20,536 bases of DNA, taken from NCBI GenBank assembly GCA_002887195.1, contig PJAB01000800.1:1-20536 (forward strand), read 5' to 3'. The stretch comes from Chrysochromulina parva (lineage: Eukaryota > Haptophyta > Prymnesiales > Chrysochromulinaceae). The notes under the pieces are model-generated. The model saw only the letters and a list, made by a program, of their open reading frames with translations. It made no database searches and was not told where the DNA came from. Shown one piece after another: positions 908 to 18,604 of this stretch (positions are counted from its first letter, which is position 1; every line of letters starts with the position of its first letter). The translations under genes were made by a program, and so were the position numbers.

Positions 908-2532
908 CTACGACTGGCAGCACGTCGAGAGCGTGCCATTGAACGGGTCGTCTGCGCCGCCCTTGGGGCACGTTTCGAAGGCGAGCCCCCTCTCCAACCG
1001 CCGGAGCGCCTTGAGGCCGTAGTAGCCGTCCTTGCCCTGCTGCCCCGATTTGAGCACATACTCGAGCTTCGCGGGGCCGGCCTGCTGCGCGCGCCGGTAC
1101 GCTTGCAGCTGGTCGACGCACTGGGGGCTGCGTTCGGGCTCCCACGGCTTCGTGATGCCGCAGCCGGGCCGCCAGGCGAGCGTTTCGTGAGGTCCCACGT
1201 ACTCTATCGAGCCGCTCGGCTTGTACCACGAGGAGCAACACCACGAACCACTGAGCATCGACGACTGCTGAATCATCGCCTCAAAGGCGGCCCGCTGCCG
1301 CCCGTCGACGAACCCGCCAAAGACACCCTCTGCTCTCTCGAGGCGCAGAACGGGAGCGTGGGCGAAGGCTGAGCTCGGGCCCAGGGTGGCCAGCGCTTGC
1401 ACGTCGGACGTGCCGAGCAGCACTGCGGCCTCTCCTCGCTCGCGTGCCGCCTGCATCGCGGCCGCGTCGGCAGCAACACGTACGCGCGTGTGGTTGGTGC
1501 GCACGTGAGCTGGGGTGAGTGGGTTGGTAAAGAAGGACGACTCGCGAAAGGTGACGGTGGCGACGCCTTCGAGATTCGAACCGGCGCTACCCATGTCGGG
1601 TGCGATGGAGGCGAAGCGTACAATGTCAAAGATGTGGGTCAGCGGGCACACGAAGGGTGTGGGCAGCTCCGACGCCTCGTACTTGCACTGCTGCAGCACC
1701 AACGGCCCCTCGGAGCGATCGCACAGGCACAGCAGCCGTGGCAGCACCAAGACGCGCCCTAGGGAGAGCGCAAGCGCGAGCGCGTCGCGTAGCGCGTGGA
1801 TGTGACGACGCACGAGCTCGAGGTGCTGGCGCAGCCGCGGCGACATTGCGAGTGCGTCCGGCACGAGCCAGCCCGCCTTGTACTTGTCGGTGTAGGCACA
1901 CGGCGCGTGCGGACCCACGTACTTGGGGCACCGGGTCTTGTTGATGAGCGGGGCGAGATGGGCGGGCGCGGGGGGCTCGGGAGGCTCGAAGGCGAGGTAC
2001 TTGGCCGAGGTGGAGGGCTCAAAGTGCGAAGGCGGCTCTAGCAGCCACAAGCCTGCATCCCGAAAGCGCCAGAGCTTGCCCCTGTTGCCTCCCTCCACGA
2101 ATGTCGTGTGCACAGTCATGCAGTCGCGCCGTGCTAAGCCCTGCTGCTCCCAAAACAAATGGCCGGAACAAAAGTGGCGCGCAGGTAGTGGTGCGAGCTT
2201 GAAGGCCATCGGCATCGGGCCGATGCGATCTGCGGCCGTGCCCTCGGACAAGCGCTCTGACAAGTACGAGGCAGCTCCGCGCGCGCTCGCATTGTGTGCG
2301 CTCGCATTGTGTGCTGCCGCCAGAGCGCTTGCTTCCGCGCCGCGCGCCGACAGGTCGAAGGCTTCGTTTGGATTGCTCAGCAGGTCGCGCCAGCCTGCGC
2401 TCCACACAGGCAGTGCCTTCGGTTCGGGCAGCTGATCGGTCTCCTCGAGCTCGGCACTGTAGTGGCTCTTGGCCAGCACGTCGATCGTCGCCCGTGTCGC
2501 CTGTGTCAGCCGCATCGCTCCTCCTCCTCCTC

Positions 2533-2573
<41 letters not shown>

Positions 2574-3856
2574 GGGTCCTCGCGCCGCCCCATACGCACC
2601 CAGATGGTCTTGCCGTCGGGCGAGGCGGCCCGTACTGCACGGCTCGGATGGTTGCGGAAGCCGTGCCATACCAACTCGTTGAAGGCCAACTGATCGTCCA
2701 CCCAGCTTGTCTTCTCGACCGAGAGCAGCCGATGGCGCCACGCGGCAGCGAAGGCCTTGGCGGCTGTAGAGGGCCGGAAAAAGACGACGCCCGTGTTGAA
2801 GGCTGCGTGCCCCTCGTTGTTGCCCGGGTTGTACGCGCACCGGTTCGTGCCCTTTGGCTTGTTCGGGGGTACTTTGGCCTCGTCGTCGGTCACGTGAAGG
2901 CAGTCGGTCGCACTCATCACGTCGGCGTGGGCCGCTGGGTAGGGGAGCGAGATTCGAAGGCCACGCGAGGGTGGTCAGAACTGGCGAGGCGAGACGGGGC
3001 GAGGCCCTCGTGCAGCAGCCTACCCACGCGCGCGCGCGCATTCGAGGCATGCTGCGAGTGCCGAGCCCCCCGAGCACGCTCGTCGGGTTGGCCATCCAAT
3101 CAAGGTCACAATTAAGGGCAATCAAGGGCAATCACCGAGCCGCCCGAGCACGCTCGTCGGGTTGGCCATCCAGATGACATCTACATCCGAGAGGAGCACG
3201 CAGCGCTCTGAGCGGAGCACTCGCAGCACGAGGTCGCCCTTGAGGGCCCCGAGGCGCCGGAACTCGGTCACGCTGCTGCGCAGGTCGCCCGTCAGCCCGT
3301 GGTCGTGCGCAAAGTACGGCAGCCCCTCGCGAAGCAGCCTTTGCTGGAACGGCCGGTCGAGTGCCGCGATCGCCATGTGCCGCTGCTTCTCGAGCCGGTA
3401 CACGTGGGCGGCCCAGTTGATCGCAAAGTCCTGGAAGGCCGTGTTCGCAAAGGTGAGCCACACGATGCCGCCTGCGGGCACGTCAGCGAAGATCTCTGGC
3501 AGCGTACGCTCATGCTCGAACACGGTGGCCTCCGACTCCGGAGGCAACGTGCGCCGCCAGCCTTGGGACCGTTCAGAGGCATTGGCGCGCCGGCCGATGG
3601 ACGTGATGCGCGGGGAAGCCACCGTCGGGATCGAAGCGCGCGGTGCCGCGCTCATGCTGGCCGGCGCCGCTTGGACCTCTGCGCTGGAGAAGACTTGCGG
3701 CCGTGCGGCCGCGTAAAAGGTAGACGTGGTGAGGATGCTGGATCGCGTTTGAAGAGTGAGGCACACTGAGCAGAGAATGAGCAGCGCCACTGCCAGGCGA
3801 GCAGAACTACCGCTGCTCCATCGCCTCGGCTCCGACGCCGCATCGCCTCCCGACAT
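908..3856 (-). CDS. GT77 family (XEG113/RRA-like) glycosyltransferase, Golgi type II membrane protein
   Basis: Two exons, 3856-3136 and 2934-908, give 915 aa. Residues 20-36 form a membrane anchor near the N-terminus, as in Golgi type II enzymes. The catalytic domain starts near residue 128 and has the metal/nucleotide-sugar motif DVD at 224-226 (LLSDVDVIWMANP). Exon 2 continues with the GT77-type segments YNPGNNEGHAAFNTG (about 275-289), VDDQLAFNEL (about 319-328), FCSGH (about 495) and HTTF (about 516), then a C-terminal extension with GRVLVLPRLLCLCD (about 633-646), as in plant XEG113-like proteins. Plant relatives add arabinose to hydroxyproline glycoproteins; the substrate here is inferred. 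Residues 362-379 are polyAla-polyGly from a triplet microsatellite. The start is the Met before the anchor; an upstream in-frame ATG at 4060 would overlap the divergent neighbour. The intron is needed to link the two domain halves. Confidence 0.85.
2283..2312. repeat. Perfect 15-bp tandem duplication in GT77 exon 2
   Basis: Two identical 15-bp units (2283-2297, 2298-2312). In frame this duplicates a five-residue unit around HNASA, doubling an Asn-X-Ser glycosylation sequon in the predicted lumenal domain. Confidence 0.85.
2521..2572. repeat. CTC/CTG triplet microsatellite in GT77 exon 2
   Basis: On the plus strand a run of CTC units passes into about a dozen CTG units. On the coding (minus) strand it reads GCA then GGA codons, giving a run of about 12 Ala followed by about 6 Gly. 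It lies in a low-complexity loop between the catalytic segments, so its length probably varies without loss of function. Confidence 0.9.
2935..3135 (-). other. GT-AG intron of the GT77 gene (201 bp)
   Basis: The donor is CTCG|GTGATT and the acceptor CTACCCAG|CGGCC (minus strand). Splicing joins a phase-1 codon (G + CG = Ala) and gives a continuous protein from VLGRL to AAHADVMSATDCL. A CTGAC branch-like site has its A at 2975, 40 nt before the acceptor. The intron carries a 37/38 copy of the end of the preceding exon. Confidence 0.85.
3061..3172. repeat. 38-bp direct repeat spanning the exon 1/intron boundary of GT77
   Basis: Copies at 3061-3098 (inside the intron) and 3135-3172 (end of exon 1 plus the first intron base), offset 74 bp, with one mismatch (3068 versus 3142). 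In the exon copy the DNA encodes WMANPTSVLGRL. A perfect 10-bp tandem repeat (AAGGGCAATC twice, 3114-3133) lies between them. Confidence 0.9.
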
Positions 3857-4058
3857 AGGGGAGTGGGCTCGCCACGGCGCCTTCGTGGGTGTCGAATTAT
3901 AAACATTGGCTGTGAATAGTATCGACCTCCAACTCTCCAACGACTGGCTGTGGAGAAAAAAGAGTTCACGCGAAGCTGCGAACTTACGTTTGGAGAGTTG
4001 TGAACGAAAACTTGTGTGACACTTTCTTGGGCCGCGAGCATGGTGTCGCGCTGACGTC
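3857..4058. promoter_or_regulatory. Bidirectional promoter between GT77 and the DDT/WHIM gene (202 bp)
   Basis: Start codons of the divergent genes are at 3856 (-) and 4059 (+), so both promoters and 5' UTRs must share this stretch unless they extend into the genes. It is AT-richer than its flanks and has a TATAAA at 3898-3903. It contains a perfect 11-bp inverted repeat (CAACTCTCCAA at 3930-3940, TTGGAGAGTTG at 3990-4000) and an overlapping GTTCAC/GTGAAC pair (3964-3969, 4000-4005). Transcription start sites are not visible. Confidence 0.65.
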
Positions 4059-4059
4059 A
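4052..4059. promoter_or_regulatory. CRE-type palindrome TGACGTCA at the DDT gene start codon
   Basis: A perfect 8-bp cAMP-response-element palindrome, the classic bZIP/CREB-ATF site, whose last base is the A of the start codon at 4059. Its function here is unproven; one perfect 8-mer can occur by chance. Confidence 0.4.
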
Positions 4060-5625
4060 TGGCATCGACCGCTTCCGATGAGGACCCGGCGCTCGCGTCT
4101 GTGCGCGCGTGCTGGGAGGTCGCGGCCCTCGCCCAGTTTTACCGCGTCTTCGGCACGCTGGAGGCGCCGAAGAGCATCGATGAGCTCGAGGCCTCCTTGG
4201 TCGGTGGCGATGAGGTCTCCTTGGTATCCTTGCTGCCTCCGCTGCTGTCACTGTCGGCGGACGCGGACGCAGGCACGTGCTGGGAAGCCGTCGCCGCTGT
4301 GCTCCTGGGCGACGAGGCCATCGGCTTTGCGAGCGATCCGCCGCCCACTTCATTCGCCGCACTCTCCGCGAGTGACCGCGGCCGCTTGCTCTACACGCTC
4401 GCGGATGCATCGCTGTCGACGCTGTCGCGCGGGCCCGACCTTGACCAGGCGACTTCGCGCGGTGAGATGCTCGGCGCGGACGGCAAGGGCGCCACCTACT
4501 GGTGCCTCGGCGACCGACGCATTTACAGGGAAGGTCTCGCGAGCCTCGGTAAGGGAAAGAAGAAGCGCTCGAGGGAAGAAGCGCTTCTCTCGAGGCCCTG
4601 GGAGACGGTGGCGACGTGCGCGGCGGAGTGGCGCGAGCTAGCGGCGACGCTCAAGTCCAAGGGCGCCGAGGGCAGCCTGCGCATCATGATCGAGCAGCGC
4701 GTCGACGCCGTTGAGGCGGAGGAAGCCCGGGAGGCCAATGAGGCCAAGCGTCAGGCGATGTTCGAGGGACAACGGCGCACGTCGACCCGTATGGAGGCCA
4801 AGGAGGAGGAGGAGCTCTCGAAGGCACTCGCGCTCGCGGAGCGGCAGGAGCGCCTCCGGCTTGTCGACCTGGTCAAGAGCAGCCTGCGCCAGATGAGTTC
4901 CGAGCTGCTCGAGGGAGGCAAGGAGGAGGGTACGGACGAGGTCGACGAGGCCCACGAGGCGCTGGTACGTCTCAATTCCCTAGCCGCGCTTCTCGTCCCT
5001 GTGCCCCATCCTGCGCTGATGGCCAGCCACCCTGTGCCGTCGCCTGTTCGTCGTCGCAGGTGCGCGCCAGGCTGCCCGTGTCGGCGGTCGCTCAGCTTGG
5101 TCTGGATGCCGTCGAGCAGCTCCTGCGTGCGGAGCGCAAGGTGCGTTCCAATAAGCGACGGCAGGAGATCCTTGCCGAGCAGCGAAGGGTCGAGAGGGAG
5201 GAGGCTGAGCGGCAGGCGGCCATTCGAGCGGAGGCGGAGCGGCTCGAGCTCGAGCGCCTCGAAGCCGACAAGAGAGCCGCCAAAGAGCTCGAGGACCAGG
5301 CCAGGCTGGCCCAGAAGGCCATCGAGAAGAAGGAAAAGGCGCGGCGCTATCGCGAGAAGAAGAAGCGCGAAAAAGAGCTGGAGCGCTGTGATGAGCAGGC
5401 CCAGGCGGCCGCGGAGCAGGCGGAACGCACTCGCCAGTGGGAGCAGCAGGCCGAGCTGCTCAAGCAGCAGTATCCTCAGCTACAAATGGCTCAGATCTAC
5501 CAGATCCTCCAGCAGCAGCAGCAGCAGCAGCAAGTGCAGGAGCAGCAAGTGCAGCAACGCGCCGCACAGAAATGGGCGATGCAGCAGCCGCAGCAGATAC
5601 AGCAGCCTCAACAGATGCAACAGAT

Positions 5626-5669
<44 letters not shown>

Positions 5670-6535
5670 TACAGCAGCAGCAGCTACAGCAGCAGCAGTT
5701 GCAGCTACTACAGAATGCACAGCGCCAGCAGCAACTGCAGCAACTGCAGCAACTGCAGCGACCGCCCCAACACCAGCTTCTGCACCAGCACCAGCACCAG
5801 CACCAACAGCAGCATCAGCAGCACCAGCACCAGCAGCACCAGCAGCACCAGCAGCACCAGCAGCACCAGCAGCTACAGCAGCTACAGCAGCTACAGCAGC
5901 TACAGCAGCAACAGCAGCAACAGCAGCAGCTCGCGCACCAGTATCAGCCGCAGCAGTTAGCGGCCTCGATACCTCCGCTTCTGGCGACGGCACCGCCTCA
6001 CGGCGGCGGCCCCAGTGGGCCACCGCCGCCGCCTTGCTCGGTCACGCACCCTGCCGTGTCGCTACTGCAAGCGATCGCGCCGCAGCGGCCCTCGGAACCA
6101 TCCGGTGTCGCTGGCCCCTTTGCCGCCGCTGCCCTCGTCCCGGGACCATTACTGCCGTGTGCACATCCTGCGAACGGCATCACGCAGCCATGGCCTTTGC
6201 CTCCGGCTGCAGCACAACCCTCGCGCATCACCACTCACCACTCACCACTCTGCACAGAAGCAACCACTTACCACTCGGCCATGGGTGCCAGCGGACCGTC
6301 ACGCACAGTGCTCGTGGCCTCCACCGCAACGCCCAAAGCCTCCTTGGTGCCCAGCGCGCATTTGGCAGCGCCGCCGCTGGCGAGGCCGCAGGCGGTCTGT
6401 GCGGCTGTCGCGCCGAGTGTGCTGCTGCTGCCTATCCCCCTTGGTGCGCCTGCAGCGACAGTGGCGCACGCTGTGGCTGGGCCTGCACCCACGGGGTTGA
6501 GTACGGATGAGAGGATTTTAGGCGTCGACGCCTAA
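4059..6535 (+). CDS. DDT/WHIM-domain chromatin-remodelling-associated protein with polyQ tail
   Basis: Two exons, 4059-4964 and 5060-6535, give 793 aa. Residues about 13-66 (CWEVAALAQFYRVFG, then SIDELEASL) resemble a DDT domain of the CECR2/RSF1 type. Residues about 106-160 fit a WHIM motif, with LGADGKGATYWCLGDRRIYR matching the usual GxDxxGxxYWxFGxxRLYRE pattern. A W-x-TV-AxxxEWREL segment follows at 181-197, as in those proteins. These families are non-catalytic partners of ISWI remodellers, so a nuclear role is inferred. Residues about 215-290 and 325-450 are highly charged predicted coiled coils. Residues about 453-603 are Gln/His-rich with several pure Gln runs, and 604-793 are Ala/Pro/Ser-rich. 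No bromodomain or PHD finger is seen. The start is the first ATG of the open frame in a good context (GTCATGG). The domain assignment is from motif memory, not a search. Confidence 0.75.
4965..5059 (+). other. GT-AG intron of the DDT/WHIM gene (95 bp)
   Basis: The donor is GCTG|GTACGT and the acceptor CGTCGCAG|GTGCG, phase 0. Reading through would keep the frame open but insert a proline/arginine/serine-rich stretch and then run out of the coiled-coil frame; splicing restores LVRARLPVSAVAQLGLDAVE and the coiled coil. A CTGAT branch-like site has its A at 5019, 40 nt before the acceptor. Confidence 0.85.
5509..5962 (+). repeat. CAG/CAC-rich imperfect trinucleotide repeat encoding polyQ/QH tract
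   Basis: About 450 bp are dominated by CAG with interspersed CAC, CAA and CTA, read in frame as Gln with His and Leu interruptions. The longest near-pure block is around 5626-5668. Sub-repeats with higher periods are visible, for example CAGCAGCAC units at 5814-5870 and CAGCTA units at 5868-5906. The tract lacks stops in other frames on both strands, which creates spurious long polyAla and polyAlaVal ORFs. Confidence 0.95.
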
Positions 6536-6950: not shown

Positions 6951-7034
6951 ACACTTTCTACTCGATCTGGCTTCGTGCAAGGGCTTTCCACGAGACTCGT
7001 CCTCGGCGATCACGGTCCGCGCTAGGATAGGATC

Positions 7035-8631
7035 ATGCCTTCCTCGATGGCGCGGCTGCTGCTGCCGCCCTTGCTGTTGAGTCCCGCAAGCGGCGCTTGG
7101 CTCGCGCCTGCAGAGCTCACGCGAGGACTCGGAAGCACCGCTGGCAGCTCTGCAACTCCGGCAGTGATGCAGCGGAGGAGGACGGCCGCCAGTCCGCGTG
7201 CGGTGCTCGCAGACCCGTCCGCGGCGAGCGCCGCGCGTGCGAACTTCACGCCAGCGAAGTCGGTCGACGTCGGCGTGATGCTGCTCAACCTCGGCGGGCC
7301 CGACAGCCTCGAAAACGTCGAGCCCTTCTTGTACAATCTCTTCTCCGACCCGGAGATCATCACGCTGCCCTCGTTCCTCTCGTGGTTCAACGGCCCGCTC
7401 GCGTTCATCATCTCGCGCTCGCGCGCGCCGCAGAGCCGCGAGGGATACGCTGCCATTGGCGGCAGCTCGCCGCAGCTCGCGACGACGCTCGAGCAAGGGC
7501 GTGCGCTCGAGGCATCGCTCGCACGGCGAGGCATCGAGGCGAAGACGTACGTGGCGATGCGGTACTGGCACCCGTTCACGGAGGAGGCGCTCAAGGCGAT
7601 CAAGGCGGACGGCGTGCGCCGCCTCGTAGTGCTGCCCCTCTACCCGCAGTTCTCCATCTCCACCTCGGGCTCGTCTCTCCGACTTCTCGAGCGCATGTTC
7701 TACGCTGACCAGGAGCTGCGACAGATGCGCGCCGTGGTGATCCCCGCGTGGTACACTCGCCCCGGGTACGTGGCGGCACTCGCGCGGCTCATCCGCGAAA
7801 AGTGCGACACGTACGCCGATCGCTCTCAGCCGACCATCTTCTTCTCCGCGCATGGGCTCCCGAAGAAGTATATTGAGACGCTCGGCGACCCTTACAAGCA
7901 GCAGACGGAGGCCACGGTGGGCGCGGTGATGTCGAAGCTGCGCAGGCTCGGGTACATGAACAACTACACGCTCGCGTACCAGAGCCGCGTCGGTCCCGTC
8001 GAGTGGCTTCGGCCGTACACAGACGACTCGATCCGTGAGCTGGGGGCCTCCGGTGTGCGCGACATGGTGACGGTGCCTATCTCGTTTGTGTCGGAGCACA
8101 TCGAGACCCTCGAGGAGATTGATGTCGAGTATGCGGAGCTCGCGAGGGAGTGCGGCATCACGGGATGGACGCGCGTGCCCGCCCTTGGGCTCGAGCAGGT
8201 GATGGCTGTTGATTGGTCCTGCAGTTTAGCCTCTCCTTGCCCCTCTCCTGACCTCTCTCTCTTTTTCTCTTTCTCTCTCTCGCGCACGCGCACGCGCGCA
8301 GGACTTCATCGACGACCTCGCCCTCGCTGTTGAGGAGACGCTGCCTCTCACCGAGGAGCGCCCAAAGTCCGACATCAACGAGGGCCGGCCCGTCTCCTTG
8401 CGCGTAGTCAACGACCTAGTGCAGCTGCGCTCAAAGGACCAAGAGATCGAATTCGGGCCGGTGCGGTACGAGGTGCGGCGCACTGGCTTGACGCCCAACG
8501 CCGAGCTGATTAACGGGCGCATCGCGATGACCTCGATCACTCTCGCGTCGCTCTATTCCGTCTATGATGGGACGCTCACCTCCGACATCCTCGAAGGGCG
8601 CCTCCCATTCTCGCAATTCTTCGGCTTCTGA
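7035..8631 (+). CDS. hemH: Ferrochelatase, plastid type with C-terminal CAB-like domain
   Basis: Two exons, 7035-8198 and 8302-8631, give 497 aa. The enzyme inserts Fe2+ into protoporphyrin IX, the last step of haem synthesis. Family motifs appear in order: LLNLGGP (83-89), YAAIGGSSP (138-146), MRYWHPF (175-181), LPLYPQFSISTSGSS (200-214), FSAHGLP (270-276), YQSRVGPVEWLRP (315-327) and PISFVSEHIETLEEID (348-363). His273 and the His355/Glu357 pair fit the catalytic His and Glu of known ferrochelatases. After a linker, ELINGRIAM (456-464) plus a hydrophobic stretch is the chlorophyll-binding-like helix of plant, algal and cyanobacterial plastid enzymes. The N-terminus looks bipartite: a signal peptide (MARLLLPPLLLSPASGA) followed by WLAP and an Arg/Ser/Ala-rich transit peptide, as for plastids bounded by four membranes. 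Met1 versus Met5 as start cannot be decided. Confidence 0.97.
8199..8301 (+). other. GT-AG intron of ferrochelatase (103 bp)
   Basis: The donor is GCAG|GTGATG and the acceptor CGCGCAG|GACTTC, phase 0, joining GLEQ to DFIDDL. A CTGAC branch-like site has its A at 8251, 50 nt before the acceptor, followed by a long CT-rich tract. The intron separates the catalytic domain from the last helix and the CAB-like tail. Confidence 0.95.
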
Positions 8632-12300: not shown

Positions 12301-15300
12301 CTACGAATCCATGTCCAAGGCCAGCGGCGTGCGAAGCCGTTGCACGCTCACCTCGGTGCGCCCGCCGCCACCGCCCTTTCCATTGGCACGGCTGCCAATT
12401 CTCATCTCCACCACTTCCTCCTCCTCTTCCCCCTCCTCTTCCCCCTCCTCTGCGTAGGCCAGAAAGGACTTTTGTCGCTCGGCCGCCGCTCGTCGCTCCA
12501 CCCGCGCAGCATGCCACTGCTGCAGCTGGCCTAGCGCCATGTTGAGCAGCGGCCAGCAGCACGCACCAAGCAAGATGAGTGCAATCAAGCCGAGCGTGCG
12601 CCCACGAGCGGCCCATCGCGTGGGCGGTGCGCCCACGCCGCCCGGGGCCCCTTCGAGCAGCTGCTCGCTGAACATAGCGTCCGGGTCCTCGGCGGCCATG
12701 CCCTCGGCCATCACCTGGCGGTTGATCCCAAAGGACAAATCGAGGAGCAGGTGTGGCGGCAGCTGCTCGAGTGCGTCACGTCGCCCTACGAGCTGACTCA
12801 GGGCGTCTGCAACGGTCAGCCCCCCAACCGCGCCGCCACCGGGCGCTCCTGTTCCGGACGGCTCCACGTCCATCGTCACGAAGAGCCCGAGGCTGCATAC
12901 CTCGACAATGGAGAGCTGCGAGGGCGCGAGGGACGTTGCCTGCGCGAGCGCCTGCAGCAGCTGGCTCGCTGAAGCCATGCGTGGCGGCGGCAGGGGCGCG
13001 AGCATTCGAAGCTCGACTCGTGCGCCGTTCTGAGGGATGGCCGCGGGCGGCTTGGGCGTGACCACCTTGGCGGACGGGTGCGAGAAGCCTTCCCAGCCCC
13101 GCACGTTGAGTGCGCGTAGCTTGATGTAGCAGCCGGCGTGGCAATAGGTGGAGCCGACGGCGATTGGCAGTGGCGCTCCCTCGTCGCCGACTTGGAGCAG
13201 GGTCTGCCATGTGCTCGAGCCCTCGTGACGAAGCAGTACCTCGAACCGTATCGCCTCGTCGAGCCGGCAGGGTGGGCCGCCGTCGCCAGTTCCTCCGCCT
13301 CGCGCCGTATTGAACGCTGTATGGTGCGACAGGAGGTGCGACGGGAGGTGCGAGGCCAAGTCGGCTTGGCGCGGTGGGGGCTGACGACCTTCGCCGTTGG
13401 CGCCAAACAAGGGGCCCCAGATGAGCAGTGAGGAGGAGCTGATGGGCTCGACAGAGGGTGGGTGGAAGGCTGCGGAGACGGCATGGTGAGGCAAGATTGG
13501 CTCTGAGCGCGCCCCGGCGGTGCTGCTTCCGACTGAGTTGTGTGCCACCACCCGAGCATAGACGGCCGTGAGCGCATCGAGTGGCTCCGTCCCAATCGAA
13601 TTGATCCACACGTCCGGAGTGACGGCATGCTTCGCAGCGCTGCGCCATACGCCGGGCTCCGTCGCACGTTGGAGCTCCACACTCAGCCACTCGTCGCCGC
13701 TGCAACCTCCGCGCAGCTCGGGCAGGGTCAGCACGACACCTGGCTCGCAAGAAGTCTCGTCGACAGACCCCGCGAGGCTGCCTCCGCCACCCGTCGACGC
13801 AGACACAGCCGGCCGAAGCTGCGCAGCGGCCGCGGCGGTCCCGGCTGGCTTCGGGACGCCGTACGGCGTCGCTGGTAGGCGCATCGCCGGCTCCGTCGAG
13901 GCGTACATCCGCTCGCTCACGCGGGACCATCCTGCCGGGCCGCGAGCCTGGACGGCGAGCGTATACGTTGTCGATGCGAGCAAGCCAGTGAGTTCTTTGC
14001 GAGTGAGCGTGAGCCCCTCGCCCACGGTGCGCATCGGTATCCCCGGGCGGCTCGAGAGAAGCCGGTACTCCTCGATAGGGTGCCCATGAGCCGCAGGCGC
14101 CGTCCACTCCACTTCGAGGGATGCACACGAGGAGCGCACGAGCCGTGGTGCAGCTGGTTGCTCCGGCGGTGCCCAGCCGGTGCTGTCGAGCGAAGCGAAG
14201 GCGCTGGCGTCCTGGCCCATGGCGTCCTGGCCCGGGCGCGGCGGCGGTGGCGGGCTGTGCGCGATGTTGCAGCTGATGGTGGGCCGGCCGAGTGACGAAC
14301 CCGCCACCGCTGGCACTGCGGCTCCTGTGAACCGAGCCGTCAGCTTGAATGAAGCGTAGGCGGCGTCATGTTTGCCCTCCGGCTCTGGCACTAGCCGAAC
14401 GACCACGACAGATGTGCCGGCCGTGGAGGCAGCTGCACTCGCATGCTTGGCACTCGGACCGCCGCCGTGCTCCAAGTCGCTGGGTCCCGCCGCCGCCGCC
14501 GCCGCCGAAGGATCGAGAACGGCCCGCCACATGCTCAGCACCTCGAGCGGCGGCAGCGCTAATGGCCCGAAATCGAGGACGAAGCGAGCTCCACCACGCC
14601 AGCTACGTACGCTCACCTCGGCCTCGAAGCCGCTGCCCCAGCTATCGACGTAGGCAAAGTCCGCTCCGAGGATGCAATTGGGAGGTGGTGGTGGTGAGAT
14701 GAGCATGGCTGCCGTGACTCCGGCACACGCAAACAAGGCCGACTGCACGGGCGGCGCGCCACGCGCAGTAAAGCCGAGGCCTTTGTACTCTGCATCGGGC
14801 GTGTCACCAAGCCTGAACGTGATGGCACCGTCCTCGGCAGCCCGCGAGGCGGTGGCTGCGTAGACCGTGAGGAGCTGGATTGGGTGGAGCCCCGCGCTGG
14901 CGGCATCGGCCGTGGGGTGGAAGCGCAGTGTGAGCGTCGCGCGGGGGACCCAGTGAAGAATGCGCACGGCGGCGCGAAAGCCACCGGTCCATACATTGAG
15001 GATGGACAGCGTCGCACCCATGCGACAGGCGGCGAGCGCCAGGCGTGTCGGCTCGTCGAGACCGGCGGACAGCGGCGGAAACGGAGGGTACCATGCCGTA
15101 GAGGAGGCGGGCGACGGGCCGCCGTAGCCTGCGCCGTCGCATGAGAGCGTCCGAGGCTCAATGGCGCCTGTGCCGTGCGCGACGAAGCCGAAGCTGTGTT
15201 TGTCATCAGGCGCCGCTCCGAGGATGAACTCGCACAGGCGCAGTGTTGAGCTTCCTAAGCCGTCGCCACCGTCGCGGGGGGTGCGCAGATCGCACTGGCC

Positions 15301-18300
15301 CGTCTTCGCATTCTTGACTGTCGAAATCGAGAACCCTCCCGCGCTCGCGCCTAATTCGAGACGCACGACCGCCCCGGGCACCCACGTCGCCACCATGACA
15401 GATGCCTTGAAGCCCGCAGTCCAGCTGAGGTCCAAGATGAAGGCTAGCCCCAGCGAGCACGTGCTCGCAGGCGGAGGCGCGGGCGCCATGGGCAGCGGCG
15501 GCGGCGACGGCGACGGCGACGGCGCAGTGTACGGCGGCGGCCTTGGCGCCGGTGGCGGCACGGGAGGCGAAGGGCTCAGGTCGACATTGCACGAAAAGGT
15601 GGGCGGCGGCACGGTCGTGTCGTACGTGAAGCCCGAGCGAACGCGCGCTCGAAACCAAATGGAACGGGGAGGGCCGAGGGGCGGCGGGTCCGCGTCAAGC
15701 ACAAAGCCGAGGCGAAGTTCAACGGACGCCATGGGCTCGGCTGCACGCCCACCTACCACTGTCGCCCCACGGACAGCATCAACCAAGATCTTTTTCTGCC
15801 CACCAAATGTAACGTTGAGCGATGCGCCTCCCTTCCATGCGCCCAGCAGCACGCGCGCCTCGAACTCGCTCCCCTCGACACGCAGGAGCAGCAGCTGCCC
15901 ACCCAGCGCGCATGCAAGCGGCGCGGCAGCCACGCCTAGTGGCGCGAGGAGCGGTGGAGCGGTATGCCCGGCACTGCAGGCGACGCATGCTCGACACCAG
16001 CACAGTGAGCAGGCACCCGCGAGGGTGGAATCGTGTGACATGCTCACGGCGGCGCCCTCCGAGGCTGCGCCAACGGCAGTCTGCGGATCGAAGGCATCCT
16101 CATCGTCCTCGCCTTCCTCGCCATCGGCCCCCTCGCCATCGCCCCCCTCGTCCAGTGGGTTGTTCGGTGGGCTCCCGCACCAACGAGAGCACTCGGCGGT
16201 GCTCGCGTCACCCTTCACTGAAGATGAGCACGGTCGGTTGCTCACGAAGGCGCTCGCATGGCCTCCCGCCTCTGGCAGCGCGGTTGTGCCTAGTGCCTTG
16301 CAAAACGAGCAGGCCGTGCACTTGCATTGCTTGCCTGCAGCACACGTGTGCGAGAGAGCACAGTGTCACGAGACGTTCATATGGGCCAAATCCGAAGCGC
16401 ACGGATTTGGTGAGGGTTAAAGCCACATGATGTGCTCACAATGGACAGCCGACGAGGCTGGGTCGCAGAACGATTGGCACTCGGCGTACTCGCTATCCCA
16501 TTGCCGGTGGCGGCCTATGACCTGCGAGGTGCACGCGGGAGGCGGCGGAGCGCGCACGGGCACGAGACGGCCACCGCTTGCCGGCGGTGGCGGCCTCGGT
16601 TGACAAAAGGGGCACAGAGCACAGCGGCACATGAGGCACATGGCCGGCGCGAACGTGGCGGAGCAAATGAACATGCACGCCTTGTACGCCGTGTCGCCGC
16701 GCACGATCGAGCTGCAGGCGGGCGCAGAGGCTGCGTCGGCAAATGATGTGGCCTGTGGCAATAGAGGCACGTCCCCACACCACTGGCAGCCGGCGCACTT
16801 ACACCTGCGACGCCACGCACCCACGCCAATCTCGTCAATCACGTCAGCGAGGGTGAGGGATCTTTGCCTGTTCGAATGAAGAGAGCGACGCGCGCGTGAG
16901 TTCGACACAATCGTTGCCATCGCACAGTGTGCAGTGGATGTCCTTTTGGAGAGGGTCGCAGAAGACCTGGCACTCGGAGGTGCCCACATCTTCCTTCCAG
17001 CGCGAGGAGCATGCAACGGCGCCGACCGGCAAGGGCGGTGGTGGTACCATCATGGCCGCGAGATCGCTACCCATGGAGCCGCCGCAGGCGATGCATCCCT
17101 TGCAGCGGCACGTGGTGCATGCCTCTGGGCCCGGCGCCGCCCCGCATGTGGGCTGTTCACAGCTCTCAAATGGCAAGTCTCCCAGCGCGAGGGACACGCA
17201 GGCCTCCCCCCGAGCTGCCACCACACGCGCTGCGACCGGTGCAGGCGCTAGGCCGGGCGGGTAGGGCGGCGGCGGGGACGCGTCGCACAGCTTGCAGCCC
17301 TGGCAGCGGCAGTAGCGGCAATGGTCGGCGGCGTGGGTGGGCTCGCATCCGGGCTCGCAGCTCGCAAATTGAGAGTCACCCAGAAGGCCTGAGCTGCATT
17401 TCCCAGTACAGAACGAGCAGAGCTGGCACTTGCACATCTTGCAATGGGCTTCGCCACCGAGCACGTTGCAAAAGCTCTCGCAGCGTGCCTCGGTCGTGTC
17501 GCCGAGGATGCCCGAAGAACATGAAGGCGGAGGCGGCGGAGCGGCAGCAGCGACGATGGTCGTCTTGGAGCGACTCGAGGAGGATGTTGAGGCGGAGGGC
17601 AGGGCAGTGGGCCTTGTGGCAGCGCCTTGGGCGCCAATGGTCTTCTGTGAGCCCGCGCCGACGCCCGCCATACCCTCCGCATCGCAAAACTCGCAGCTTT
17701 TGCACTTGCACATCTCGCAATGCGAGTCCGCGAAGTACGCATCACAGAAGACGTCGCAGGTCTCCACGCGCCCATCGTCGGGGAGGAAGGAGTCGCACGG
17801 GACGCCCTCGCGGCACCATTCGCAGCCTTGGCACGCGCACCAGTCGCAATGCGTCCGGTGGAAGCTCACGTCGCACCAGGGCGCGCAAGTCGCATGCTTA
17901 GCATCGCCCGCGTGTGTCGAGCTGCACGAGCACCACTCGCACTGCTGGCACTGGCAGCGCGCGCAGTGTGTGTGCTTGTATGTCGGAGAGCAGAAGGTCT
18001 GGCAGTCGAAGACGCTCACGTCGTCTGCGTCAGCGGGCGTGCACTGTTCCGGTGCCGCGCGCGTGGTGCTCGCCATGAGCGCCGGCGCTGCACGGCACAT
18101 TGGGCACGCTTTGCACTTGCACTGGTCGCAGTGCGTGTCGCGGAATTCGAGTGCGCACCAGGGCTCGCACAACTCGTCGGCGCTGTCGCCCTCCACCTGA
18201 GATTCGCATGCACAGAAGCCGCACGCCTTGCATTTGCACAGACCACAGTGGTCGGCTTTGTACTGACTCGAGCAAAATGAGGCGCAGTCACGGAACGTTG

Positions 18301-18604
18301 AGTCGCCGTCGTGGCCAGAGTGGCATGCATCCACAGCACTGCCGCCTCCTGCGACGCTGCTCCCGGGTAGCGCGCTAGCCCCAGCACCTGCTGCGCCGCC
18401 GCACCAGCCGCACCCCATGCACGCGCACCAGCCGCAATGTTCCGCCCTGAAGATTGGCGAGCACCATCCAAAACAACCCGGCTTGGAAGCATCGCCCTCG
18501 TGCACGGTAGGGCAAGATGCTAGCGAGCGAGATGCTGGCGCGTTTATCTGACAGGTGCAATGCGTGGTGAGAAGGGCAACGAGGAGCAAGACGCGTCTGC
18601 GCAT
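12301..18604 (-). CDS. Giant modular cell-surface protein: 13 eight-cysteine repeats, four CBM2-like modules, FnIII-like modules, one membrane helix
   Basis: Three exons, 18604-16926, 16804-16440 and 16334-12301, give 2025 aa. The signal peptide is MRRRVLLLVALLTTHCTC. Residues 31 to about 801 hold 13 repeats of about 38 aa with eight Cys each. Four modules (823-930, 974-1080, 1118-1218, 1235-1370) begin and end with Cys and share W-x2-GF-x-A-x-V near the start, as in CBM2 carbohydrate-binding modules. They are joined by Ser-Pro/Pro linkers. A good FnIII domain lies at about 1404-1498, with two weaker ones at 1546-1629 and 1639-1774. A SEA-like alpha/beta segment (1786-1891) precedes a membrane helix at about 1928-1949 and an acidic tail. 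This suggests a type I surface protein that binds wall or scale polysaccharide. The function is inferred; the repeat family is not one I know. The start is the Met directly before the signal peptide. Confidence 0.85.
16335..16439 (-). other. GT-AG intron 2 of the giant surface protein gene (105 bp)
   Basis: The donor is TCCATT|GTGAGC and the acceptor GTGCTGCAG|GCAAGC (minus strand), phase 1. Splicing yields HCKQCKCTACSFC, completing repeat unit 12, and leads straight into unit 13. Without splicing the frame stops at 16419-16417. A CGTGACA branch-like site has its A at 16366, 31 nt before the acceptor. Confidence 0.9.
16805..16925 (-). other. GT-AG intron 1 of the giant surface protein gene (121 bp)
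   Basis: The donor is CACACT|GTGCGA and the acceptor CGTCGCAG|GTGTAAG (minus strand), phase 2. Splicing turns the unfinished unit 10 into HCTLCKCAGCQWC, exactly the repeat consensus. Without splicing the frame runs to a stop at 16844. A CTGAC site has its branch A at 16844, 39 nt before the acceptor. Confidence 0.9.

What the first reader, a model, noticed from the sequence alone, without database searches (positions are those of the whole stretch)
12301..18604. A 2025-aa surface protein combining novel 8-Cys repeats, CBM2-like modules and FnIII domains
Three separate minus-strand frames become one protein after removing two introns. The order is signal peptide, 13 Cys repeats, four CBM2-like modules with Ser-Pro linkers, FnIII-like modules, a SEA-like segment, a membrane helix and an acidic tail. 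I know of no described protein with this architecture. It looks like a sugar-binding, mechanically extended surface receptor or adhesin, possibly holding cellulosic scales or wall, or catching prey or bacteria.
Basis: partly seen in the sequence, partly recalled or inferred. Interest (0 to 1): 0.88.

Follow-up and report, generated by a model that had tools for sequence, protein, structure and literature searches.

The report
Giant sugar-gripping algal surface receptor family
A genome that is likely algal carries a gene predicted, once two likely introns are removed, to make a 2025-residue cell-surface protein built from 13 copies of an eight-cysteine unit that is absent from the family libraries searched, four relatives of bacterial cellulose-binding modules and fibronectin-type modules; it would likely grip sugars on particles or other cells, and at least three more genes of the same genome share its likely membrane-anchoring half.

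Summary
Removing two predicted GT..AG introns joins three minus-strand frames into one 2025-aa protein, and both splices rebuild the repeat motif HCxxCxCxxCxxC. Related proteins keep frame and order (P0003, P0001, P0010). Three paralogues in the same genome (C2065, C1399, C2084) are uninterrupted frames with other combinations of the same parts and one membrane-span-like stretch near the C-terminus. The four modules are related to CBM2: a 13-module profile against all PDB sequences puts three cellulose-binding chains first (E 0.0017-0.0097, next 0.62; two of the three are the same C. fimi module), and the 12 best Foldseek chains for the module-4 model are cellulose-, xylan- or chitin-binding modules. 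Pfam's CBM_2 cut-off and the full three-Trp face are not met. The 8-Cys repeat has no significant Pfam or PDB match and occurs on 11 further contigs. The SEA-like domain has the right topology at low confidence. Best reading: a combinatorial family of membrane-anchored, extended, probably glycan-binding adhesion receptors. Ligand, localisation, transcripts and organism are unproved.

The parts
12301..18604 (-). whole gene from start codon to stop, three predicted exons
   Evidence: spliced frame of 2025 aa without internal stop; relatives P0001, P0002, P0003, P0010
16926..18604 (-). exon 1: signal peptide and repeats 1 to most of 10
   Evidence: P0002 98.9% identical over residues 1-561
16805..16925 (-). 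intron 1 (predicted, 121 bp, GT..AG)
   Evidence: splice rebuilds repeat 10; GC 0.595
16440..16804 (-). exon 2: end of repeat 10, repeat 11, most of repeat 12
16335..16439 (-). intron 2 (predicted, 105 bp, GT..AG)
   Evidence: splice rebuilds repeat 12; GC 0.543
12301..16334 (-). exon 3: rest of repeat 12, repeat 13, modules, FnIII, SEA-like, membrane span, tail, stop
18542..18604 (-). signal peptide, residues 1-21 (by eye)
   Evidence: MRRRVLLLVALLTTHCTCQIN; no predictor run
15976..18514 (-). 13 eight-Cys repeats, residues 31-801 (introns included in the span); the 13th carries an acidic insertion
   Evidence: no significant Pfam or PDB match
15583..15915 (-). CBM2-like module 1, residues 822-932; lacks both aligned aromatic positions
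15133..15462 (-). CBM2-like module 2, residues 973-1082; W986 at the first aligned Trp position, Lys at the second
14719..15030 (-). CBM2-like module 3, residues 1117-1220; W1130 and Y1173 at the two aligned aromatic positions
14263..14679 (-). CBM2-like module 4, residues 1234-1372; W1247 and W1284, both kept in P0010
   Evidence: AF2 pLDDT 76.8, pTM 0.71; Foldseek (42) and VIA (43)
13888..14157 (-). FnIII module 1, residues 1408-1497
   Evidence: Pfam fn3 27.7 bits, cut-off 25
13489..13752 (-). FnIII-like module 2, residues 1543-1630, with a paired-Cys signature
   Evidence: no Pfam hit here; aligned to relatives
13048..13464 (-). FnIII-like module 3, residues 1639-1777, with an insertion and a paired-Cys signature
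   Evidence: no Pfam hit here; aligned to relatives
12700..13023 (-). SEA-like domain, residues 1786-1893
   Evidence: AF2 topology E-H-E-E-H-E, pLDDT 62.9, pTM 0.46; best Foldseek match the membrane-proximal ectodomain of phogrin, E 0.004
12529..12597 (-). membrane span, residues 1928-1950
   Evidence: hydropathy 2.18; 16 of 23 residues identical in P0010
12304..12528 (-). tail, residues 1951-2025: juxtamembrane stretch (12 of 16 identical in P0010) then acidic run (13 of 54)

Best explanation
With two predicted introns removed, this gene reads as one 2025-residue protein with 13 eight-cysteine repeats, four modules related to bacterial family-2 carbohydrate-binding modules, FnIII-type modules and a single membrane-span-like stretch, and it would likely stand out from the cell surface as an extended adhesion receptor that is predicted to grip beta-linked polysaccharide through modules 3 and 4. 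Shown by sequence and calls: the open spliced frame, the repeats, the relation of the modules to CBM2, the single hydrophobic span, and three paralogues with the same C-terminal core and different N-terminal sets. Inferred: secretion and type I topology, a stiff rod made of disulfide-rich repeats and FnIII modules, and attachment through the SEA-like domain. Also inferred: that two aromatic residues per module (W1130/Y1173 and W1247/W1284) form a flat sugar-binding face like that of two-aromatic CBM2 modules, with modules 1 and 2 acting more as spacers. The combinatorial family (7 repeats and no modules; 5 repeats plus at least one module; no repeats and five modules; 13 repeats plus four) would give different reach and specificity on one conserved anchor.
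For: Spliced frame and restored motif. Related proteins keep frame and order: P0003 (282 of 370 aligned residues identical, 53 of 54 Cys), P0001, P0010. Three single-frame paralogues. CBM2 relation. Aromatic positions aligned with W17 and W54 of the C. fimi module (that numbering is recalled); both kept in module 4 of P0010. SEA-like topology and matches to membrane-proximal ectodomains. Against P0010, FnIII-1 63%, FnIII-2 70%, main part of FnIII-3 68%, SEA-like 62%, span 70% and juxtamembrane stretch 75% are more alike than module 4 at 47%. In another haptophyte, two of six CBM1 modules tested bound cellulose and chitin in vitro (PMC5962083: abstract and passages).
Confidence: 0.55

Rival explanations
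1. The protein is a holdfast for the cell's own coat: the modules would bind cellulose-like material in the alga's scales or extracellular matrix and tie it to the membrane.
For: CBM2-type fold; passages of PMC5962083 say that cellulose is reported in coccoliths, and its abstract that two coccolithophore CBM1 modules bind cellulose.
Against: The organism is not identified. C. tobin, the published haptophyte genome that I compared with, is described as naturally wall-less (PMC4580454 passage), but the window was not shown to be that species. Paralogue C2065 has no such modules, so coat binding cannot be the role shared by the family.
Confidence: 0.2
2. The CBM2-like modules are structural beta-sandwiches without sugar affinity, and the protein works in protein-protein adhesion (mating, flagellar or homophilic contact), with the Cys repeats as the binding part.
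For: The full three-Trp face is not kept; the Cys repeats are the more widespread part (11 further contigs, against one distant module hit); C2065 has repeats only.
Against: Aromatic residues stand at the aligned face positions in modules 3 and 4 and in module 4 of P0010.
Confidence: 0.2
3. Separate genes or a misassembled chimera read as one.
For: No transcript was available; three frames are involved; no in-register match from another species spans residues 390-1004.
Against: Both splices rebuild a conserved motif exactly; three paralogues are uninterrupted frames with the same order of parts; P0001 joins modules and FnIII, P0010 joins module 4, FnIII, SEA-like domain and span.
Confidence: 0.03

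Closest known systems
CBM2 (Pfam PF00553), for example the C. fimi module 1exg/6qfs and ScLPMO10C 6f7e
   Same: profile similarity, beta-sandwich fold of module 4, Cys near both ends in the 13 modules aligned (cut out at these Cys)
   Different: below Pfam's cut-off, incomplete aromatic face, long loops, and set in a protein with a predicted membrane span instead of a secreted enzyme
Membrane-proximal SEA-like ectodomains (phogrin, IA-2, EpCAM, Trop2; 'SEA-like' recalled)
   Same: position next to the span, predicted topology, Foldseek and VIA matches
   Different: no sequence match, low-confidence model, many unrelated ferredoxin-like proteins score alike, no recalled G-S-V-V-V cleavage motif between strands 2 and 3
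Fungal-type CBM1 proteins of Emiliania huxleyi (PMC5962083, abstract and passages)
   Same: a haptophyte with predicted extracellular carbohydrate-binding modules, two of which bind cellulose and chitin
   Different: CBM1 is an unrelated small module (recalled); no mention of CBM2 in that text
Prey-recognition lectins of protists (mannose receptors named in a passage of PMC11982794)
   Same: surface protein with carbohydrate-binding modules, if the inferred function holds
   Different: C-type lectins there, CBM2-like fold here; no functional data here

Membership tests
CBM2 (PF00553) | score above Pfam's gathering cut-off of 24 bits | tested here: not met
   12.9 bits; 2 of 11 modules match weakly, best E 0.0091; C2084 14.3 bits
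CBM2 (PF00553) | sequence-profile similarity to solved CBM2 chains | tested here: met
   three of the five hits at E up to 10: 0.0017, 0.0023 (two versions of one C. fimi module) and 0.0097; next 0.62
CBM2 (PF00553) | CBM2 beta-sandwich fold | tested here: met
CBM2 (PF00553) | three exposed Trp of the cellulose-binding face (recalled) | tested here: not met
   by sequence alignment only: first Trp in 3 of 4 modules, second position Trp in module 4 and Tyr in module 3, third not found
CBM2 (PF00553) | binds polysaccharide | not testable with these tools
   needs a binding assay
Fibronectin type III (PF00041) | module 1 scores above Pfam's cut-off of 25 bits | tested here: met
   27.7 bits
Fibronectin type III (PF00041) | modules 2 and 3 score above Pfam's cut-off | tested here: not met
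   0 families at E up to 10 for window 13047-13752; this stretch starts with module 2 and ends with module 3
SEA domain | Pfam SEA match | tested here: not met
   none at E up to 1 or up to 10 in P0010 and the C-terminal parts of three paralogues
SEA domain | ferredoxin-like fold next to the membrane | tested here: inconclusive
Type I single-pass surface protein | signal peptide and one C-terminal membrane span | tested here: inconclusive
   span by hydropathy; signal peptide by eye; no localisation

The most novel reading that the evidence does not exclude
These genes are the prey-capture receptors of a mixotrophic haptophyte: a combinatorial set of long, disulfide-stiffened surface lectins whose CBM2-derived heads seize chitin, cellulose or bacterial wall glycans, displayed on the haptonema or the feeding pole, with reach and specificity set by shuffling repeats and modules onto one anchor.
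Probability: 0.18. Interest if true: 0.88.

Novelty: new variant of a known kind. Interest (0 to 1): 0.62.

Why it matters
How phagotrophic algae recognise prey is open at the molecular level: a 2025 study of a coccolithophore says that the mechanisms of prey uptake need further examination and that recognition by carbohydrate-binding lectins is likely (PMC11982794, passage). Here is a concrete gene family with binding-type modules, a long ectodomain and a conserved anchor, so the question becomes a test with purified modules. The eight-Cys repeat is also a compact, probably disulfide-bonded module without a significant match in Pfam or the PDB, found on 12 contigs of one genome, among them one that encodes a methyltransferase-like protein.

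Tried and rejected
Bacterial or viral origin: a back-translated repeat pattern gave 0 matches in viral contigs and 3 in the genome-contig collection of 84,980 prokaryote species, against roughly 0.5 by my hand estimate with equal base use; the three loci were not read. The module region gave no relative in viral contigs. The CBM_2 family search of the own genome gave 0 of 1, so the modules are invisible to the standard model.

PDB profile of the SEA-like alignment: 52 hits at E up to 10, best 0.007, none named a SEA domain; judged uninformative because of Gly-rich linkers and a poor alignment. In some searches transposases, monooxygenases and other ferredoxin-like proteins score near the receptor ectodomains, so the SEA label rests on position and topology.

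Relatives: the C-terminal core search gave four proteins; P0011 and P0012 matched only 14% and 18% of the query, carry FnIII among other Pfam domains and were not used. C2147 shares FnIII-like sequence only, by eye, and was left out of the family. A weaker first module candidate of C1399 (by eye) and the partial module 2 of P0001 were left out of the module alignments; repeat 13 was left out of the repeat alignment.

This speaks against a haptophyte but does not exclude one, because the search for any 18S gene did not complete. The held assembly (45.07 Mb, 2199 contigs) is smaller than the published C. tobin one (59 Mb, 3,472 contigs), which could be a subset or another species. I leave the organism open; 'algal' rests on inference from gene structure, composition and the family, not on a test.

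Papers: ten searches. I saw only the listed titles and abstract starts, at most 12 per search of up to 393 holding papers, and none described this architecture or the Cys repeat; (haptophyte, fibronectin, receptor, carbohydrate-binding together) held 0 papers. Papers opened: PMC4580454 (passages and one section), PMC2824669 (passages), PMC5962083 (abstract and passages), PMC11982794 (passages).

Full report
Observation. The three minus-strand frames join into one reading frame of 2025 codons when 16925-16805 and 16439-16335 are removed. Both are GT..AG, 121 and 105 bp long, poorer in GC (0.595, 0.543) than the third codon positions of the exons (0.753). The strongest evidence is internal: each splice falls inside a Cys repeat and rebuilds the spacing HCxxCxCxxCxxC. 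No transcript was available, so the introns stay predicted.

Independent support for the gene model. P0002 (98.9% over residues 1-561; a cluster of 16 sequences from JGI) is in effect the same gene and runs into intron 1 with the same letters as the window's own frame. P0003 (71.7% over residues 1-389 by BLAST, 282 of 370 in the pairwise alignment, 53 of 54 aligned Cys kept) is a more distant version. P0001 aligns from residue 1005 to 1760 (modules 2 to 4 and FnIII) and P0010 from 1221 to 1999 (end of module 3 to the tail), at 37% and 52%. In register, none of the more distant ones covers residues 390-1004. That stretch is bridged by paralogue C1399, where Cys repeats, modules, FnIII, SEA-like domain and membrane span lie in a single frame of 1652 codons and BLAST aligns residues 355-896 of this protein in one piece (24%, E 1.9e-22).

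A family, not a single protein. In the same genome (45 Mb, 2199 contigs) exon 1 matches 17 places, 2 of them in this gene and 15 on 11 other contigs (lower bounds); all 11 carry at least one full core motif. Three relatives share the C-terminal core: C2065 (7 core repeats, no modules), C1399 (5 core repeats and at least one module) and C2084 (no core repeat, five modules by eye), all with FnIII modules, a SEA-like stretch, one hydropathy peak of 2.05, 2.46 and 2.49 close to the C-terminus and a tail. C2065 and C1399 also show an N-terminal peak that fits a signal peptide; that of C2084 was read by eye. So N-terminal parts have been combined differently on one type of anchor. Other contigs carry one or two repeats in smaller proteins, four of them with one hydropathy peak (C1990, C1671, C1601, C1014).

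The repeat. 35 cores were counted in 12 proteins; the residue before the core is His in 32 of 35. 34 repeats were aligned (the 13th of this gene was left out because of its insertion): eight Cys are invariant, Asp and His at 90% or more. No significant Pfam family (34 members scanned; two families, one member each, best E 0.13), no NCBIfam match for exon 1 and no PDB relative (one hit, E 0.46). Disulfides are the likely role outside the cell; metal binding is not excluded.

Binding face. In the alignments, W17 of the C. fimi module pairs with the Trp of the W..GF motif (W986, W1130, W1247; absent in module 1), and W54 pairs with Y1173 in module 3 and W1284 in module 4. Module 4 of P0010 keeps both; module 4 of P0001 has Val at the second, while its module 3 has Trp and Phe. 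The third Trp has no partner. Two-aromatic faces are enough in xylan-binding CBM2 modules (recalled), so modules 3 and 4 are the candidates for binding. The residue numbers of the C. fimi module are recalled.

The anchor. Identity with P0010 by part: module 4 47%, FnIII-1 63%, FnIII-2 70%, FnIII-3 50% in its first part, 20% in its insertion and 68% in its main part, SEA-like 62%, stalk 52%, span 70%, juxtamembrane 16 residues 75%, acidic tail 24%. Against P0001 the contrast between modules (38-53%) and FnIII (49-56%) is small. The SEA-like model has the order strand, helix, strand, strand, helix, strand; its best Foldseek match is the membrane-proximal ectodomain of phogrin, with IA-2 also listed (E 0.004 and above), but VIA Z stays at 7.2 or below and many ferredoxin-like proteins score alike. 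FnIII modules 2 and 3 have no Pfam hit in this protein and are assigned by relatives.

How it most likely works. Inferred: a secreted ectodomain anchored by one helix, with FnIII and SEA-like modules as stalk, modules 3 and 4 as sugar-gripping heads, and the disulfide-rich repeats as an outer rod or a second binding surface. The conserved juxtamembrane stretch and the weakly conserved acidic tail suggest attachment to a partner near the membrane rather than a long signalling tail. Which sugar, and whose, is unknown. Prey or bacterial glycans fit a phagotrophic flagellate; own-coat binding and sugar-free adhesion are live rivals.

Known versus new. Each module type except the repeat resembles a known fold. 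The combination and the repeat were not found in the libraries, nor in the titles and abstract starts of the papers listed. Novelty: new variant of a known kind (modular membrane-anchored lectin-like receptor), carrying one apparently undescribed module.

Noticed in passing
L027 (G000:C442) 211-1980 +: A TylF-type methyltransferase frame (Pfam 142.5 bits, two stretches, the better at residues 491-570) carries one eight-Cys repeat at about residues 317-354. By eye another TylF-like stretch lies before the repeat, as if it were inserted into the enzyme; the place of the second Pfam stretch was not printed.
   Followed up: partly
L024, L029, L034 (C1399, C1990, C1020), C-terminal 80-90 residues: Three proteins with Cys repeats (two with a clear membrane-span peak, C1020 without one above the threshold) end in a similar-looking domain (by eye, beta-grasp or PB1-like); no Pfam match over it reached its cut-off. 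Possible signalling module.
   Followed up: partly
16805-16925, 16335-16439, and ends of P0003, P0004, P0006, P0009: Introns or, by eye, frame ends fall near the same HCxxCxC part of different repeats (the window's two introns in different phases), which could mean repeated intron gain at one kind of site.
   Followed up: no
window 908-4138 -: A nucleotide-diphospho-sugar transferase (PF03407) is split over two frames that match profile positions 3-86 and 89-159, probably by an intron; a Gln-rich frame lies nearby on the other strand (4742-6535).
   Followed up: no
window 7026-8631 +: Ferrochelatase (349.5 bits) followed by a short frame whose end looks like a chlorophyll-binding-type tail (by eye, no Pfam hit); possibly one gene with an intron.
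   Followed up: no
L028 (C1835) 3439-5052 -: Besides one Cys repeat, a stretch resembling fungal CBM1 (CGGKGWVGPTLCC, by eye); no Pfam hit at E 0.01.
   Followed up: no
P0002: The cluster of the near-identical protein holds 16 member sequences from JGI, so this organism or a very close one recurs there.
   Followed up: no
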